Positions 640 to 18,127 of a DNA stretch of 27,520 bases are shown piece after piece. The notes below the pieces were generated by a model, which made no database searches, was not told where the DNA came from, and worked only from the letters and a program-made list of their open reading frames with translations. The stretch comes from a virus, in the IMG/VR virus record IMGVR_UViG_3300050821_003095, positions 1-27,520 of that record. One strand, given 5' to 3'. The position numbers and the translations under genes were made by a program. Every line of letters starts with the position of its first letter. The first letter of the stretch is position 1.

Positions 640-831
640 TCACAGCTTCTCGGTGTCTTGGATAAAACCCGCCACTGCCGCGAGCACCGCCAAACCAGAC
701 GTGACAACAGCAGCCCACGTTGCGGGCAGGAAATTACCGTAGGTGTGCATCAACGTGGTACCCACAGCACCCGTAGCCGATAGGAACGCCACAACCTTTT
801 GCGCGGTCTGAGATAGGTTTATTGATGCCAT
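640..831 (-). CDS. Holin-like small membrane protein
   Basis: This 63-residue protein starts at ATG 831 behind a strong ribosome site (GGAAGGAACC, about 8 bases upstream). Residues about 11-29 are weakly hydrophobic and residues 37-57 strongly so, with a short polar N-terminus and a charged C-terminus (DTEKL). This is compatible with a one- or two-segment holin that makes the membrane lesion through which the endolysin reaches peptidoglycan. The size, position beside lysin A and lysin B, and topology fit mycobacteriophage holins. It is separated from lysB by three tRNA genes on the other strand, so it may have its own promoter. A TTGACG hexamer on the minus strand (884-889) is a possible -35, but no good -10 follows. 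Confidence 0.75.
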   Translation of the reverse strand: MASINLSQTAQKVVAFLSATGAVGTTLMHTYGNFLPATWAAVVTSGLAVLAAVAGFIQDTEKL

Positions 832-908: not shown

Positions 909-992
909 GGAGAGGTAACTCGGCTGGTGTCGTGGCGTCCCTGCTAAGGACTGCGAGTTTCACCGCTTGAGGTTCGATTCCTCACCTCTCCG
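909..992 (+). tRNA. tRNA-Ser (anticodon GCT)
   Basis: The acceptor arm GGAGAGG (909-915) pairs perfectly with CCTCTCC (985-991), and the discriminator base is G. The anticodon loop is CTGCTAA, giving anticodon GCT (serine AGC/AGU). A long class II variable arm precedes the T arm, whose stem TGAGG/CCTCA closes the loop TTCGATT. The gene lies on the strand opposite to the flanking lysis genes. The 3' CCA is not encoded. The D arm pairs less well than the rest. Confidence 0.88.
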
Positions 993-997
993 CTTGG

Positions 998-1082
998 GGA
1001 AGGCGCCGCCGGATGGTCGGCAAGCGGTCTTGAAAACCGTGGTGAGCAACGCGTCTTAGGGGTTCGACTCCTCCGCCTTCCG
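998..1082 (+). tRNA. tRNA-Ser (anticodon TGA)
   Basis: The acceptor arm GGAAGGC (998-1004) pairs with GCCTTCC (1075-1081), with discriminator G. The anticodon stem GCGGT/ACCGT closes the loop CTTGAAA, giving anticodon TGA (serine UCA, rare in high-G+C mycobacterial genes). A long variable arm is present, as expected for serine. The T loop is TTCGACT. The T stem has one mismatch and one G-T pair. It starts six bases after the first tRNA, so the two are probably co-transcribed. Confidence 0.87.
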
Positions 1083-1083
1083 C

Positions 1084-1157
1084 GCTCCGGTAGCCCAATT
1101 GGTAGAGGCACCAGATTTAGGCTCTGGTCAGTGAGAGTTCGAATCCCTCTCGGAGCA
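1084..1157 (+). tRNA. tRNA-Leu (anticodon TAG) with a short variable loop
   Basis: The acceptor arm GCTCCGG (1084-1090) pairs with TCGGAGC (1150-1156, one G-T pair), and the discriminator is A, as in leucine tRNAs. The anticodon stem CCAGA/TCTGG closes the loop TTTAGGC, giving anticodon TAG, which reads CUA. The T loop is TTCGAAT, with an A-C mismatch inside the T stem. The variable loop has only five bases (TCAGT), so the molecule has the 74-base class I layout, whereas cellular leucine tRNAs are class II. It starts one base after the second tRNA and ends one base before the lysB stop codon. Confidence 0.85.
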
Positions 1158-1158
1158 C

Positions 1159-2286
1159 TCAGGTTTGAGTGCCACCGGAGTTGATGTAGTCGGCCGTCCA
1201 CTTCTGGCACACACCCGTCAGATACTCAATCGCGGGAAGCCAGTTATAGTCGTAATGATCGGCGGCGGCTTGGGCGACGAGAAACATGATGCCGTTGTAG
1301 ATTTCTTCGATCATCCCGACGGGCATCAAGAGGGCTTCAGCGACTTCTACGACGTTGAGGAAGTCTTGCTTCTGAACCGCGTTGTACACGAGGGTTCCGA
1401 CGTGGCCGGCGGGGGCTTCCGCGGTCCACGGGTTATCCCCCACGGGGGCGTTCGTGTACAGCTCGGTAGCTCCCCCGTCTGTGCCCAACCATACGTAGTC
1501 GTACCAAAAGGCTGGTACCTCATTGGGTTTCAGGCAGTCAGGGCCGGAGATTCCCCCTGTGACGGCGCCGAACTGTTTCGCGGGCATCCCCCAGCCACAG
1601 TTCGCGTTTCCGTTGGCGACACCCGGACTGCGGCAGGGGTTGCCGAATGTTGCTGCGGCGATCACATCAGGAAGGCGGTTGTGGCATCGGCCCTGCGGGT
1701 TCAACACTTCGTCGCGCCAGAAATGGGACGCGCAAATCCCGCCTTGCGAATATCCGAACGGGATGATCGGGCCCACCGTGTGAACAGTGTTGACCTGCCG
1801 CACAGCCTCATCGACACCCATCTGAGCCGACGCCCCCATAGGCGGATTAGTTACCGAGGCCGGATAGTTACCGATGGGCTGCACCACCACGTTCGGACAT
1901 GCCTTAGCGACATACTGCGCCGCCCCATACGGTTGCGGGGAGTCGGTGTCGAACATGTCCACACCGGTTCCCTGCCACGTCAAAATGGTGATCTTCGGGG
2001 GTGCGATGAATCCTGATCGGACCTGCCACGACCAGTTCATAACACCGTTGGCCTGCAGTGCATCCGAGTGGATGGTGGCTTTGTCCGCAAGGTATGCCTT
2101 CTGCATCTGCGTGACAACATCAACCATCGTCTGGTCGTACGTTTCAGCCGCCGTTCCACCCGCGGTCAGGGACGCTTGAAGCGGGGCTGCGTAGGAGAAC
2201 CGCTTGACAAAGTTGGCCTTCATGGCCTGCACGGTGGCAGAAACATCGTTGAGGCCATACCCGACCCAGGTGCCGTTAACTTCCAC
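1159..2286 (-). CDS. lysB: Lysin B, mycolylarabinogalactan esterase
   Basis: Lysin B proteins of mycobacteriophages cut the ester bond between mycolic acids and arabinogalactan and so detach the outer layer at lysis. This protein has 375 residues. The GTG start at 2286 lies three bases after the lysin A stop and behind AAGGGAA. Residues about 1-90 form an N-terminal region that looks like the peptidoglycan-binding part of longer LysB proteins. An alpha/beta hydrolase domain follows, with the nucleophile elbow GYSQG (Ser180). By spacing relative to known LysB enzymes, Asp263 and His344 are the likely other triad members. Four or more cysteines are scattered through the domain. The stop is one base from the 3' end of the opposing tRNA-Leu gene. 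The assignment is strong; the triad Asp and His are inferred from spacing. Confidence 0.93.
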   Translation of the reverse strand: MEVNGTWVGYGLNDVSATVQAMKANFVKRFSYAAPLQASLTAGGTAAETYDQTMVDVVTQMQKAYLADKATIHSDALQANGVMNWSWQVRSGFIAPPKITILTWQGTGVDMFDTDSPQPYGAAQYVAKACPNVVVQPIGNYPASVTNPPMGASAQMGVDEAVRQVNTVHTVGPIIPFGYSQGGICASHFWRDEVLNPQGRCHNRLPDVIAAATFGNPCRSPGVANGNANCGWGMPAKQFGAVTGGISGPDCLKPNEVPAFWYDYVWLGTDGGATELYTNAPVGDNPWTAEAPAGHVGTLVYNAVQKQDFLNVVEVAEALLMPVGMIEEIYNGIMFLVAQAAADHYDYNWLPAIEYLTGVCQKWTADYINSGGTQT

Positions 2287-2289
2287 GAT

Positions 2290-3522
2290 CTAGTTCCCTT
2301 CAGGGATATTGAGGATTTGTCCAGAAAAAATCAGGTTTGGATTAGTGATGTCCGGGTTCGCCGCGAGGAGGGCTTCTTCAGTGACGCCGAACTGACCCGC
2401 GATCTGGTCGAGGCTGTCCCCGAATTGCACCCTGTACGTCTCAGACACAGGAGCAGGCGCAGGTGGTGGAGGTGGGGGTGGTTGTGTGCCACCGTATTTC
2501 GCTACAGCAGCAGCGAACACATCCCACGGAAAGTTGTTCCCAACATCGGTGTGGGTGTTGCCGTCCTGCAGGTAATCGGAGCAGTAACGGTGGTCGCTGA
2601 TCCCCGGTGGGTCGGAGTTGTAGTCCGGTCCCGCAATGACATTCAACGGAATACCCCAGGCGTGGCAGTCCAGCACCGCCAGATACGCTGCCACATCGAT
2701 ACCGCGCCCCATGTTCGACAACCATTGCCCGCGGGACCAGTTGACGGTTGAGCCGGCGAAGCACATGTTGATGGAACGGTTGTTGCTGTTCATCACCGAC
2801 CACGACGCTTCCGGCATGTTCACGACATCGAATACATTGACGGCGTTGTCGATGGTGCGGTGATAAGAGACGGGGTTGCCGGTGTTCGCGGAGTTGATCA
2901 GGAAGTTAGCTAAATCCTCCGCCGACCCGGCACCTTCCTGCGTGTGCAGCAGCACCAGGTCTATCGGGGTTCCGTCGCGGTCTTGGTAGTTGGGGCAGCG
3001 GCCAACCCAGTTGTGGTAGTTGAATACCGGTGCTGCGGCGGTGACGTTCGACACTGGGGATACCTTTGGCTGAGAGGTGAGTCGGTTGTATTGCGCGACA
3101 GCGGCGCCGAATTCCTCGTCGTACCGGGTTGGGAACGCGGATTGCTGCACGTCCTGCGCGAACGTCCCGGGAGAGGTGTCGGGGTCGTTGTAGTTCATGC
3201 CCGCAAGGTGGTGATAAAACATCGCCGCCGACAAGTGGAGATCCATCTCCTCGGCGACGTCTCCCCACCACTGAAATTGCTGTTGGAACGGTCCCGCGGA
3301 GTCGTGGTCGTAACCATCCCCGTCGTTTGGAAAGTTCTCCGACTCGGGGACATTCGGGTTAGCAAGATCCCGATCACCGGATTCAACAATCGCTGTGGAT
3401 AATGCGATCTGAATACCCCGAGGACTGATCACGGGGTGCAGAGTTTCCGGTGTACCGACTGTGCGGGCGGTCTGGCCTTCAGCGATGATGGCGAGCGCAA
3501 CCTGATCAGGTGTGTATGTCAT
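2290..3522 (-). CDS. lysA: Lysin A, peptidoglycan hydrolase with amidase and LysM domains
   Basis: This endolysin cuts peptidoglycan. I chose ATG 3522 (410 residues) because it overlaps the stop of the upstream small gene as ATGA; a GTG at 3534 is in frame but less likely. Residues about 1-150 match the N-terminal hydrolase-like part of mycobacteriophage LysA proteins (ESGDRDLANPNVPES followed by SAGPFQQ). Residues about 170-340 form an N-acetylmuramoyl-L-alanine amidase type 2 domain. Its likely zinc ligands are the His in LLHTQE (about 193) and the His and Asp in THTD (about 324-326). A linker of seven prolines follows, then a C-terminal LysM segment (about 361-405, YRVQFGDSLDQIA). LysM binds N-acetylglucosamine in the wall. 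The cleaved bond of the N-terminal part is not assigned here. Confidence 0.93.
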   Translation of the reverse strand: MTYTPDQVALAIIAEGQTARTVGTPETLHPVISPRGIQIALSTAIVESGDRDLANPNVPESENFPNDGDGYDHDSAGPFQQQFQWWGDVAEEMDLHLSAAMFYHHLAGMNYNDPDTSPGTFAQDVQQSAFPTRYDEEFGAAVAQYNRLTSQPKVSPVSNVTAAAPVFNYHNWVGRCPNYQDRDGTPIDLVLLHTQEGAGSAEDLANFLINSANTGNPVSYHRTIDNAVNVFDVVNMPEASWSVMNSNNRSINMCFAGSTVNWSRGQWLSNMGRGIDVAAYLAVLDCHAWGIPLNVIAGPDYNSDPPGISDHRYCSDYLQDGNTHTDVGNNFPWDVFAAAVAKYGGTQPPPPPPPAPAPVSETYRVQFGDSLDQIAGQFGVTEEALLAANPDITNPNLIFSGQILNIPEGN

Positions 3523-3659
3523 CGTTCCCACCACTGCCGTCGAATGCGCGGACGATCTACGCGCATCTCGAACTCCGCTATCCGCTGCTTGGCTGCTGCG
3601 AACATGGGCGCCAGTTCGGCCTTTGCCTCATCGCTCAAGTCATCAGTCAATGGGTTCAC
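3519..3659 (-). CDS. Small charged protein upstream of lysA (46 aa)
   Basis: This short frame starts at GTG 3659 and ends with a TGA that overlaps the lysA ATG (ATGA). It overlaps the preceding membrane gene by 17 bases. It begins MNPLTDDLSDEAKAELAPMF and ends in a basic, tryptophan-containing tail (RPRIRRQWWER). It reads as one amphipathic helix with an acidic front and a basic end. The coupled junctions on both sides make it likely to be translated. I recognise no family. It could be a partner of the neighbouring 45-residue membrane protein or of lysin A, but nothing in the sequence proves this. Confidence 0.6.
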   Translation of the reverse strand: MNPLTDDLSDEAKAELAPMFAAAKQRIAEFEMRVDRPRIRRQWWER

Positions 3660-3780
3660 TGTCGTCCAATTCGGTGGGGTCGATGAATGCGGCAGTAAAA
3701 AACGCCGCCAGCCAACAACCGACCACGACGGACAAGATGAGCCAGCCGGCGTCGATCACCCAGTGCAGAACTTCCCTCAT
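3643..3780 (-). CDS. One-pass small membrane protein in the lysis region (45 aa)
   Basis: The ATG at 3780 overlaps the stop of the phospholipase D-like gene as ATGA. The protein has 45 residues: a short polar N-terminus (MREVLHWVID), one strongly hydrophobic segment at about residues 11-33, and an acidic C-terminal tail (DPTELDDSEPID). It lies between a hydrolase and lysin A in a coupled run of lysis genes, where phages often put holins, antiholins or holin regulators. The shape would suit a pinholin-like or regulatory membrane protein. The separate holin-like gene at 640-831 leaves the division of labour open. The assignment rests on topology and place only. Confidence 0.65.
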   Translation of the reverse strand: MREVLHWVIDAGWLILSVVVGCWLAAFFTAAFIDPTELDDSEPID

Positions 3781-4316
3781 GCCTTCGCCTTCGCGATCAT
3801 GTGCGCGTGAATTGCATCTATCCGCATGCGGGCCTCGGCTGCCCGAGCTGGGCTGATTGACACCGTTAATTCGTTGTCCTGCAGATGTTCTGCAGCGTCA
3901 CTCCAGTTTGTTGAGCCGGTCGCCAAGATCGTTCCGTCGATCATCATCAACTTGAGATGCATGATGCGGCCATGCTCTGAAGATCCGATAGCCACTGAAC
4001 TATTCGGGAATTGTTCTTCGGCGAGGAGTTGCCGCTCGTGTACGCCGCCGGCTTGGGAACCATCGAGGGTGAGCCTCACCCGCACTTTAGGATCAGCCAA
4101 TTTCACCTTTAAAGCTGCTGCAAGATCAGGGTCGTCGAACCCGAACATCGCCAGATCAATTTCTTGATGGGCGTGGTTAATCAGAAACAGCAGCACGCCT
4201 TTGAGGTCGTCCACGGGTGAGTAGAAAGTTCTCACGTCTTGGGGGTATCCCGGCGAGAACGGTGCGGCTTTGAACTGGTCCAGCACTGTAAGGCTCGAAA
4301 GCGGATGAGCTGACAT
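3777..4316 (-). CDS. Phospholipase D-like (single HKD motif) protein
   Basis: This protein has 179 residues. The ATG at 4316 overlaps the upstream stop as TGATG. It carries one complete HKD motif: His120, Lys122 and Asp127 (HLKLMMID), followed by GSTNWS at 134-139. It also has the N-terminal strand-helix pattern of the family (QEIDLAMFGFDD). Single-motif members of about 150-200 residues, such as bacterial Nuc-type endonucleases, work as homodimers that form one active site from two HKD motifs; some relatives cleave phospholipids. There is no signal peptide. It lies between a PE-PPE-type hydrolase and small lysis genes, which could suggest a lipid substrate, but a nuclease that degrades host or competing DNA is equally compatible. 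The family is clear; the substrate is not. Confidence 0.85.
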   Translation of the reverse strand: MSAHPLSSLTVLDQFKAAPFSPGYPQDVRTFYSPVDDLKGVLLFLINHAHQEIDLAMFGFDDPDLAAALKVKLADPKVRVRLTLDGSQAGGVHERQLLAEEQFPNSSVAIGSSEHGRIMHLKLMMIDGTILATGSTNWSDAAEHLQDNELTVSISPARAAEARMRIDAIHAHMIAKAKA

Positions 4317-5044
4317 CAGTAGGTTGGTGTCGCGACGGTGACTGGCCGGTTGTAGGCCGACTCGATGGTGGGACGGATAGCTTCATCGAGGGCGCTCACC
4401 GTGGAGTTCCATGTGGTTCCATACATGGGGACTGGTTGCGTCATAGACCAGATGTAGGTGGTGTTCCCGACAACGTGTGAACCGTTCCCTGCGGCCGTGG
4501 GGTTTGGTGACACGTTTTGATAGTTCGGGTGCACGGAGCCCTGGCCGGCGAGGGCGTTGAAGAAGGCGTTACCGTTGAATGTGCCTGTGGGATAGTCGGT
4601 CCAGCCGTCGTATTGTCTTTTCACGTCGGTTACTTGGTAGGAGCTGCTGGTGGGGAAGTTGACGGCTGTGGTGAACCAGTTCTGCCACTCATTCCCCGCT
4701 TCGGGCCCCAACGCCCCTCCATATGGGCTGACGGAGTTCCCAATGAACGTGAAGGACAGATCAGAGGGGCTGATGGTGCTTGAAGGTCCGTAGTTGGCGA
4801 TCCAATACGAACCCACAACCGCGCCCAATGAGTGCCCGAATACCACCATGTCCCCGGTCCCGGACAGCAGGTAGGAGTTCAACAGTTGGGCGCCCTGCTC
4901 GACGGTCGACAGGAAAAGCCCAAAGTTGTTGTAAGGGACCTGAATGGTGGTTTGTCCGTTGGTGACGGCGCCTTGCAGCATGGTCGGCATGTAGTTGTTC
5001 AACCCGCTGAACGCGCCACCCAGCATGTAAACCGTTGAGGTCAT
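4316..5044 (-). CDS. PE-PPE-domain serine hydrolase (alpha/beta hydrolase)
   Basis: This protein has 242 residues and starts at ATG 5044, next to the stop of the following structural gene. It has an alpha/beta hydrolase core with the elbow GHSLG (Ser72), an Asp in RQYDGWTDYP (Asp146) and a His in VHPNY (His172). The RQYDG..D(F/Y)P block followed by VH..Y is characteristic of the PE-PPE domain found at the C-terminus of mycobacterial PE and PPE proteins, several of which are esterases. Here the domain is free-standing, without a PE or PPE leader or a signal peptide. It is coupled to the phospholipase D-like gene and lies upstream of lysin A. I infer a role against host envelope lipids or in the virion; a tail-associated enzyme is also possible, as it directly follows the tail genes. 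Confidence 0.8.
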   Translation of the reverse strand: MTSTVYMLGGAFSGLNNYMPTMLQGAVTNGQTTIQVPYNNFGLFLSTVEQGAQLLNSYLLSGTGDMVVFGHSLGAVVGSYWIANYGPSSTISPSDLSFTFIGNSVSPYGGALGPEAGNEWQNWFTTAVNFPTSSSYQVTDVKRQYDGWTDYPTGTFNGNAFFNALAGQGSVHPNYQNVSPNPTAAGNGSHVVGNTTYIWSMTQPVPMYGTTWNSTVSALDEAIRPTIESAYNRPVTVATPTY

Positions 5045-5449
5045 TTACGCGGAGGTTGGGATGGCGACGCTCAGCGACGACAGCTGCAGAATGTTGCCCG
5101 AGGCCCACGCCTGGGAAGTGGTGAGGGCACCGGAGGTGATGAACGTACCCGAGGTGGATGCTGTCCAAATAGAGATCGCGGTAATCGTCTCCGACGTACC
5201 GCCATTCGTCCACTGCGGGTTGGAGGTGGTCATCGTGATAGTTCCCGACGATGAAGTGCCGAACGTCACCGAGACACGCGTGGAGGAGCCGGCGGAAATG
5301 CTTGTCGTGCCCGCGGTGCCCGGTGCGGCGGTGTGCAGTTGGACGAAAACGTTGCCTGAGGTGGTGTAGGCGTTCGTCGCTATCGTGGTGCCGTTCAACA
5401 CGTTCAGCAACGCGTTCGCGACCGTCGAGGAGAAGCTGTACGTGCTCAC
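5045..5449 (-). CDS. Probable minor tail or virion structural protein
   Basis: This protein has 134 residues and is rich in Ser, Thr and Ala (many TST and SGT repeats). It is predicted to be mostly beta strand. The start is GTG 5449, overlapping the stop of the upstream 36-residue gene as GTGA. The segment FVQLHTAAPGTAGTTS resembles a motif (LHT..PG..GT) seen in small phage tail or fibre proteins. It is the last structural-looking gene before the lysis genes. There is no signal peptide and no catalytic motif. A fibre tip, adaptor or decoration role is likely; the exact role is unknown. Confidence 0.65.
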   Translation of the reverse strand: MSTYSFSSTVANALLNVLNGTTIATNAYTTSGNVFVQLHTAAPGTAGTTSISAGSSTRVSVTFGTSSSGTITMTTSNPQWTNGGTSETITAISIWTASTSGTFITSGALTTSQAWASGNILQLSSLSVAIPTSA

Positions 5450-17483: not shown

Positions 17484-17792
17484 CTAGGTTCCCTTCCTGT
17501 TGAAGACTTTCGCGCGGTGCGCCTCATAGTCCGCGATGCTGGTGAACTCCGACTTGGCTTCTGCCGCAGGCTGTTTACGCGTGGTGCGCCAGTCGGGTTG
17601 GTTGGTTTCCAGCGACGCGAGCATTGTTCCGTTGTCCAGGACGTGGCAGACGGATGATCCCGGCGGGGCGGCGACTATCAGTGATAGGACTTCTGGCGCG
17701 GTGAGTTTCGGGGTGAACAAGTCGGTTGCATGCAACCCCAGGACCAGTAGGTCCCGCTGGACTGCGTGCCAGTGGAAACCGATGGCACGCAC
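17484..17792 (-). CDS. Tail assembly chaperone, downstream frame (T-type)
   Basis: This 102-residue frame, counted from GTG 17792, is probably made mainly as the C-terminal part of a fusion with the upstream frame, by -1 frameshifting (as lambda G-T). The frame is open back to 17834 without a good start codon or ribosome site. It ends three bases before the tape measure gene. It begins MRAIGFHWHAVQRDLLVLGL and ends SEFTSIADYEAHRAKVFNRK. The mixed basic, helical character and the place between the major tail protein and the tape measure fit tail assembly chaperones. Independent translation from GTG 17792 cannot be excluded. Confidence 0.8.
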   Translation of the reverse strand: MRAIGFHWHAVQRDLLVLGLHATDLFTPKLTAPEVLSLIVAAPPGSSVCHVLDNGTMLASLETNQPDWRTTRKQPAAEAKSEFTSIADYEAHRAKVFNRKGT

Positions 17793-17800
17793 CAGCAGCG

Positions 17801-18127
17801 TTATTCCGGGGGTAGTCCGACCTCTGGTGGTTCGCTAAGGTTTTTGAACCACCGGTCGAAGAATGCTTCCCGTTCGTCGTCGGGGAGGTCGAGGACGCGT
17901 TCCTGAATGTGGTCGGGAACTTTCGCGCGGTCCATGAACTCGAATGTTTGGTATGCCTCGCTGAGTTTGCGGACCTTCCAAAGGAACTTGATCGGCTTGA
18001 TGCCGTCCACTTCTTCCCATAGCACAGACGATTTGGGGAAAACAATGGGTTCGGAGCCGTCCTCAGGGCGGTAGGTGAAGGTCGGCTTGTCCCCGTAAGG
18101 GGACGCCTTCTCTTCTACTGCGGTCAC
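17801..18127 (-). CDS. Tail assembly chaperone, upstream frame (G-type)
   Basis: This 108-residue protein starts at GTG 18127, overlapping the major tail protein stop as GTGA. It is acidic (EDGSEPIVFPKSS, EVDGIKPIKFLWKV, DDEREAFFDRWFKN). In siphoviruses the gene just before the tape measure encodes a chaperone that is partly extended into the next frame. Here the next frame is -1 relative to this one and lies directly downstream. The likely fused product continues GLPP-GITLLVRAIG. The protein coats the tape measure before the tube polymerises. The call is by position, size, acidic character and frame arrangement. Confidence 0.85.
   Translation of the reverse strand: MTAVEEKASPYGDKPTFTYRPEDGSEPIVFPKSSVLWEEVDGIKPIKFLWKVRKLSEAYQTFEFMDRAKVPDHIQERVLDLPDDEREAFFDRWFKNLSEPPEVGLPPE
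17807..17813 (-). other. Candidate -1 programmed frameshift site
   Basis: On the minus strand the last codons of the upstream frame read GGA CTA CCC CCG GAA TAA. The heptamer A CCC CCG (17813-17807) allows a slip of one base back, giving ACC CCC GGA ATA and entering the downstream frame. The -1 frame is closed by a TAG at 17837-17835, so any shift must happen in the 34 bases 17834-17801. The heptamer is imperfect for the X XXY YYZ rule because the first base is A rather than C. Confidence 0.5.

What the first reader, a model, noticed from the sequence alone, without database searches (positions are those of the whole stretch)
3519..5044. Lysis region enlarged by a PE-PPE hydrolase, a phospholipase D-like protein and two hidden small genes
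Between the last tail gene and lysin A lie four genes that usual mycobacteriophage lysis cassettes lack: a free-standing PE-PPE-type serine hydrolase (Ser72, Asp146, His172), a single-HKD phospholipase D-like protein (His120, Lys122, Asp127), a 45-residue one-pass membrane protein and a 46-residue charged protein. The junctions TGATG, ATGA and ATGA tie them to lysA, so they should be made together. Together with LysA and LysB this could attack three envelope layers: inner-membrane phospholipid, peptidoglycan and mycolate or other lipid esters. The substrates are inference; the phospholipase D-like protein may instead be a nuclease.
Basis: partly seen in the sequence, partly recalled or inferred. 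Interest (0 to 1): 0.72.

Follow-up and report, generated by a model that had tools for sequence, protein, structure and literature searches.

The report
Phage envelope-enzyme genes beside lysin genes
Between the tail genes and the cell-bursting genes of an uncultured mycobacterium-type phage sit a lipid-ester-cutting enzyme, which relatives build into the phage tail, and a phospholipase-D-fold enzyme, which relatives keep beside the cell-wall-cutting lysin; the stretch looks like a meeting point of entry and exit tools rather than one enlarged lysis set.

Summary
The four ORFs exist as described: a PE-PPE serine hydrolase (PF08237, E 4.5e-19), a single-HKD PLD-like protein (PF13091, E 1.9e-17), a 45-aa membrane protein and a 46-aa charged protein, all packed against lysA. 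Relatives split the block. The PE-PPE domain tracks tail genes: it is the N-terminal part of a Gp37-type tail protein in three contigs, lies among tail or fibre genes 4.5-6.8 kb from lysA in two more, abuts a tail gene in the window, and has no signal peptide; a separate LysB is present. The PLD protein tracks lysins: its family (at least 85 uncultured phage contigs; no match in 50,697 cultured phage records) lies within 3.5 kb of an endolysin in 24 of 31 records (4.1 expected). In contig L011 the two are 5.3 kb apart, PLD beside lysA, PE-PPE with tail genes. The PLD model is closest to NucT, Zucchini and Nuc, but the family is acidic, so its substrate is open. The 45-aa protein stays with the lysin. 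Best reading: a tail-borne entry esterase next to a lysin-linked phosphodiesterase. The three-layer lysis model is only partly supported. New variant of known kinds.

The parts
4316..5044 (-). PE-PPE-type serine alpha/beta hydrolase, 242 aa, no signal peptide; Ser72 in GHSLG, Asp146, His172
   Evidence: PF08237 E 4.5e-19; triad invariant in relatives; AF2 model pLDDT 82.9, nearest PDB a cutinase-like protein
3777..4316 (-). Single-HKD PLD-like phosphodiesterase, 179 aa; His120, Lys122, Asp127, GSTNW motif
   Evidence: PF13091 E 1.9e-17; family of at least 85 contigs; AF2 model pLDDT 89.6, nearest PDB NucT/Zucchini/Nuc
3643..3780 (-). 45-aa single-pass membrane protein, acidic C-terminus; lysin-linked
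   Evidence: Homologues in L002, L003 and L004, upstream of the endolysin gene each time
3519..3659 (-). 46-aa charged protein, overlaps TM45 by 17 nt and lysA by ATGA
   Evidence: Homologue L003:9423-9581 at the same place, E 3e-4; junction
2290..3522 (-). LysA endolysin (N-terminal domain, Amidase_2, LysM); start ATG at 3522 preferred over GTG at 3534
   Evidence: Pfam and PHROG hits; L002 orthologue starts MTYTPDE
1159..2286 (-). LysB (mycolyl-arabinogalactan esterase type)
   Evidence: phrog_102 E 1.9e-48, weak Cutinase hit; separate clade from PE-PPE
640..831 (-). 63-aa holin candidate downstream of LysB
   Evidence: 38.6% over 57 aa, E 2.8e-6, to L017:12251-12445, which lies between LysB and an r1t-type holin
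5045..5449 (-). gp80-type tail/fibre protein, 134 aa, abuts the PE-PPE gene (TAA|ATG)
   Evidence: PF23140 E 3.3e-20; 83% identical partner beside PE-PPE in L003
12341..14329 (-). Sipho_Gp37-type tail protein; homologues in L005, L006 and L012 carry the PE-PPE domain at their N-terminus
   Evidence: PF14594 E 2.2e-36; alignment with L005

Best explanation
The stretch is the boundary of two late modules. (1) The PE-PPE hydrolase belongs functionally to the tail. It is a serine esterase made with the tail genes, without a signal peptide, and carried on or near the baseplate, where it would deacylate outer-membrane lipid esters of a mycolic-acid bacterium (acyl-trehaloses are a plausible substrate) during adsorption and entry. 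(2) The PLD-like protein, TM45 and q46 belong to the lysin side. PLD is a cytoplasmic single-HKD phosphodiesterase, probably a homodimer, made in step with the endolysin; it acts late on nucleic acid (somewhat more likely) or on membrane phospholipid. TM45 is a small membrane protein, possibly a second holin or holin modulator. q46 is a small lysA-coupled protein. Shown: genes, family matches, motifs, junctions, and gene-neighbour and fusion patterns; folds are predicted. Inferred: virion location, substrates, dimer, holin role.
For: PE-PPE is fused to the N-terminus of a Gp37-type tail protein in L005, L006 and L012, while the window has the same kind of tail protein without the domain plus a free PE-PPE gene. 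PE-PPE directly follows a tail gene in the window, L003, L004 and L011. Distances to LysA are 6.8 kb (L011), about 8 kb (L005, L006) and 16 kb (L012), and a separate LysB gene is found in all of these except L006, whose contig ends at LysA. PE-PPE and LysB are separate clades, 100/100 support. PLD: endolysin within 3.5 kb in 24/31 records against 4.1 expected, most at about 1 kb. In L011 PLD is 0.9 kb from LysA while PE-PPE is 6.8 kb away. PLD copies occur in Kitasatospora, Catenulispora, Modestobacter and Mycobacterium contigs, so its use is not tied to a mycolate layer. TM45 stays with lysA in L004 while PE-PPE and PLD lie about 4 kb upstream. PLD structure nearest to NucT, Zucchini and Nuc.
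Against: In the window, L002 and L003 the PE-PPE gene is only about 0.5-0.8 kb from lysA. L019 has a PE-PPE protein with a signal peptide between LysB and holin. The close PE-PPE loci are only five, and two of the three tail-fused ones (L005, L006) are near-copies. In L004 PLD sits with PE-PPE among fibre genes, not at lysA. Seven of 31 PLD records have the detected endolysin 22-91 kb away. The PLD family is acidic (median pI 5.4), which does not favour a nonspecific nuclease. No virion proteomics and no enzymology.
Confidence: 0.55

Rival explanations
1. Enlarged lysis cassette: PE-PPE, PLD, TM45, q46, LysA and LysB are all lysis proteins that attack inner membrane, peptidoglycan and outer lipids in turn.
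For: Overlapping reading frames from PE-PPE to LysA; L019 carries PE-PPE between LysB and holin, with a signal peptide; PE-PPE (PF08237) hits are reported for LysB proteins themselves (PMC7022511, PMC4563357, PMC8223927).
Against: Tail fusion and tail-gene location of the nearest PE-PPE relatives; LysB already present; the PE-PPE gene is just as tightly joined to the tail gene upstream.
Confidence: 0.22
2. PLD and PE-PPE are cargo genes (morons) inserted at the tail/lysis junction with no role in entry or lysis, for example superinfection exclusion, host-surface change, or DNA degradation against rivals.
For: L002 has an unrelated 139-aa HNH-like ORF in the PLD slot; signal-peptide PE-PPE genes sit at the right end of Anayavirus genomes beside HicAB; PLD has weak similarity to DrmC of DISARM.
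Against: Strong PLD-lysin proximity across diverse phages; PE-PPE tail fusion.
Confidence: 0.18
3. Within the best explanation, the PLD protein is a membrane phospholipase (for example on cardiolipin) that cooperates with the holin, as the reader first proposed, rather than a nuclease.
For: Lysin linkage; acidic family; Zucchini/MitoPLD, a close structural match, is named a cardiolipin hydrolase in PDB entries.
Against: Best sequence and structure matches are NucT and Nuc, called nucleases; no membrane anchor seen in the sequence.
Confidence: 0.3

Closest known systems
PE16/Rv1430 and other PE-PPE (PF08237) esterases (PMC3562317, PMC3037379)
   Same: PF08237 match; Ser-Asp-His order and spacing (74 and 26 residues here; 77 and 26 in Rv1430); alpha/beta hydrolase fold
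   Different: No PE or PPE domain and no signal peptide; motif GHSLG, where the host proteins have Gln at the fourth place; phage gene next to or fused with tail genes
Chp2/Rv1184c acyltransferase and the PE protein of trehalose polyphleate synthesis (PMC4183827, PMC10465359)
   Same: Chp2 is among the proteins listed with a PE-PPE domain (PMC3562317); works on acyl-trehaloses
   Different: Membrane-anchored host biosynthetic enzyme; substrate of the phage protein untested
Mycobacteriophage LysB
   Same: Same wide hydrolase superfamily; the LysB profile weakly reaches PE-PPE
   Different: Separate clade (100/100); the window has its own LysB
NucT (6ehi), Nuc (1byr), Zucchini (4ggj)
   Same: Single HKD, GSxNW/F motif, about 160-180 aa, TM-scores up to 0.77
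   Different: About 20-24% identity; the phage family is acidic, without signal or anchor, and lies beside endolysins
Ms6 lysis cassette (Gp1, LysA, LysB, Gp4, Gp5; PMC6116114)
   Same: Small gene ahead of lysA and small membrane proteins around LysA/LysB
   Different: q46 and TM45 match no known family; no PE-PPE or PLD gene among the five described Ms6 genes

Membership tests
PE-PPE domain family PF08237 | Profile score above curated cut-off | tested here: met
   69.2 bits against 21
PE-PPE domain family PF08237 | Ser-Asp-His triad in a GxSxG/S context | tested here: met
   S72, D146, H172 in 11/11 aligned proteins
PE-PPE domain family PF08237 | Esterase activity | not testable with these tools
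   Shown for Rv1430 (PMC3562317), not for phage proteins
LysB | Groups with LysB proteins | tested here: not met
   Separate clade, 100/100; no significant blastp match to any LysB tested (best E 4.7)
PLD-like PF13091 | Profile score above cut-off and intact HxKx4D | tested here: met
   63.8 bits against 27; H120 and K122 in 37/37, D127 in 36/37
NucT/Nuc nucleases | NCBIfam NucT equivalog cut-off | tested here: not met
   32 bits against 297; the works-like claim rests on predicted fold and weak profile similarity
NucT/Nuc nucleases | Homodimer with nuclease activity | not testable with these tools
   No complex prediction or assay available
Lysis cassette gene (PLD) | Recurrent proximity to endolysin | tested here: met
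   24/31 within 3.5 kb, expected 4.1
Lysis cassette gene (PE-PPE) | Recurrent proximity to endolysin | tested here: not met
   Close in window, L002, L003 and (distant relative) L019; 4.5-16 kb in L004, L005, L006, L011, L012
Tail-associated enzyme (PE-PPE) | Fusion to, or operon with, tail proteins | tested here: met
   Fused to PF14594 protein in L005, L006, L012; next to tail genes in the window and other free copies
Tail-associated enzyme (PE-PPE) | Presence in the virion | not testable with these tools
   Needs virion proteomics
Holin (TM45) | Membrane hole formation | not testable with these tools
   One hydrophobic segment only; no significant family match
Ms6 Gp1-type LysA chaperone (q46) | Sequence similarity to Gp1 | not tested
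   Position only; no Pfam, PHROG or NCBIfam hit

The most novel reading that the evidence does not exclude
Uncultured actinobacteriophages carry a widespread, lysin-coupled single-HKD phosphodiesterase as an unrecognised lysis component, and some phages of mycolic-acid bacteria carry a PE-PPE esterase on the tail that deacylates outer-membrane glycolipids, such as acyl-trehalose receptors, to open the mycomembrane on entry.
Probability: 0.3. Interest if true: 0.72.

Novelty: new variant of a known kind. Interest (0 to 1): 0.5.

Why it matters
How phages breach the mycobacterial outer membrane on entry is poorly understood. A tail-module esterase related to host acyl-trehalose enzymes would be a testable candidate tool. 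The PLD family (at least 85 uncultured contigs, no match to the window's member in 50,697 cultured phage records) would be a common but unseen partner of actinophage endolysins.

Tried and rejected
PLD fused to a larger protein in L060, L078 and L080: rejected for L060, whose N-terminal part is an Arg-rich frame that looks non-coding; L078 and L080 not read further. HNH assignment of the L002 ORF in the PLD slot: suggestive C/H pattern, but no Pfam, NCBIfam or PADLOC hit and no cultured-phage match. PLD as a DISARM or other defence protein: only weak DrmC similarity (E 6e-8 in PADLOC). PE-PPE as a LysB variant: rejected by tree. Promoters or terminators isolating the block: no sigma-70-like site, terminator-like sites below shuffle average. 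PDB sequence search with the PE-PPE alignment: nothing significant. r1t holin in the window: not found; the 63-aa ORF at 640-831 is the candidate instead. Literature: no paper held all of 'phospholipase D-like', endolysin, phage, nuclease and lysis; of the PE-PPE/phage/tail papers, the three read treat PE-PPE only as a LysB or lysin domain. The random-placement null is lenient, because any late gene is nearer to lysins than average.

Full report
Setting. The window is a 27.5-kb IMG/VR virus record. Apart from three tRNA genes, the genes studied here are on the minus strand: portal, capsid, a Sipho_Gp37-type tail protein, minor tail proteins, a gp80-type protein, then the reported block, LysA and LysB.

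Observation. The four ORFs, their motifs and the three named junctions are confirmed. Two additions: TM45 and q46 overlap by 17 nt, and PE-PPE abuts the tail gene upstream (TAA|ATG). Tight packing therefore joins PE-PPE to both sides and cannot by itself assign it to lysis.

PE-PPE. Relatives fall into three settings. (a) Free genes, 61-68% identical to the window's, in L002, L003, L004 and L011, next to tail genes; in L004 lysA is about 4.5 kb downstream behind fibre-like genes, in L011 6.8 kb. (b) N-terminal domain of a PF14594 tail protein in L005, L006 and L012, about 8-16 kb from lysA. (c) Divergent copies with what looks like a signal peptide: L019 between LysB and holin, and Nibb gp97 and similar genes of Anayavirus at the right genome end. 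StAugustine gp42 lies between tail genes and lysA. The L013 and L014 copies follow a recombinase gene. The window protein groups with (a), by path nearest to the fused domains among other rows, and LysB is a separate clade. Fusion plus gene order favour a virion role. Known relatives are esterases (PMC3562317) or act on acyl-trehaloses (PMC4183827), and trehalose polyphleates are needed for infection by phages BPs and Muddy (PMC10465359); the substrate suggestion is inference from these.

PLD. A profile search found 85 contigs with a relative (80 kept; 72 loci, the window included, after near-copies were removed); the window protein has no match in 50,697 cultured phage records, and a second member only a distant Wolbachia phage one. 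Downstream neighbours are often endolysins. In whole records, GH25, Rv2525c-like or Amidase_2 endolysins were detectable in 31 of 50; in 24 they lie within 3.5 kb (expected 4.1; no simulation of 20,000 exceeded 13). Genome copies lie in several actinobacterial groups, so the function is not specific to a mycolate layer. Fold and profile matches point to NucT, Nuc and Zucchini, yet the acidic charge leaves the substrate open. In L011 the PLD gene is 0.9 kb from LysA while PE-PPE is 6.8 kb away, separating the two associations in one genome.

Small genes. TM45 homologues in L002, L003 and L004 all sit just upstream of the endolysin (with q52 between in L003), even when PE-PPE and PLD are elsewhere. 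q46 has one convincing homologue, in L003. Their roles (holin partner, LysA helper) are guesses by position; the Ms6 cassette shows that such parts exist (PMC6116114).

Verdict. Observation confirmed, interpretation half right: PLD, TM45 and probably q46 are lysin-linked; PE-PPE is more probably a tail enzyme. Overall a new variant of known kinds, interest moderate.

Noticed in passing
window 909-1158 (+): Three tRNA genes (Ser-GCT, Ser-TGA, Leu-TAG) on the opposite strand, ending exactly where LysB ends (1159).
   Followed up: no
L002:2570-2989: A 139-aa HNH-like ORF without any family match takes the exact place of the PLD gene between PE-PPE and TM.
   Followed up: partly
L011:15517-16500: lysA appears interrupted by an HNH-type ORF (likely intron or homing endonuclease insertion); Pfam finds NUMOD4 and HNH_3 among the PLD neighbours.
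   Followed up: no
L011, L015-L019, L021, L023, L041, L048 (cluster c10): A conserved 250-400 aa protein (phrog_19005), cysteine-peptidase-like by eye (GDC ... GGHY), recurs near PLD and lysin genes.
   Followed up: partly
L004:9282-11879: A fibre-like protein with a weak GDSL/SGNH esterase domain lies next to PE-PPE and PLD.
   Followed up: partly
window 17484-18127 (-): Two adjacent small ORFs before the long tail ORF look like a tail assembly chaperone frameshift pair (by position only).
   Followed up: no
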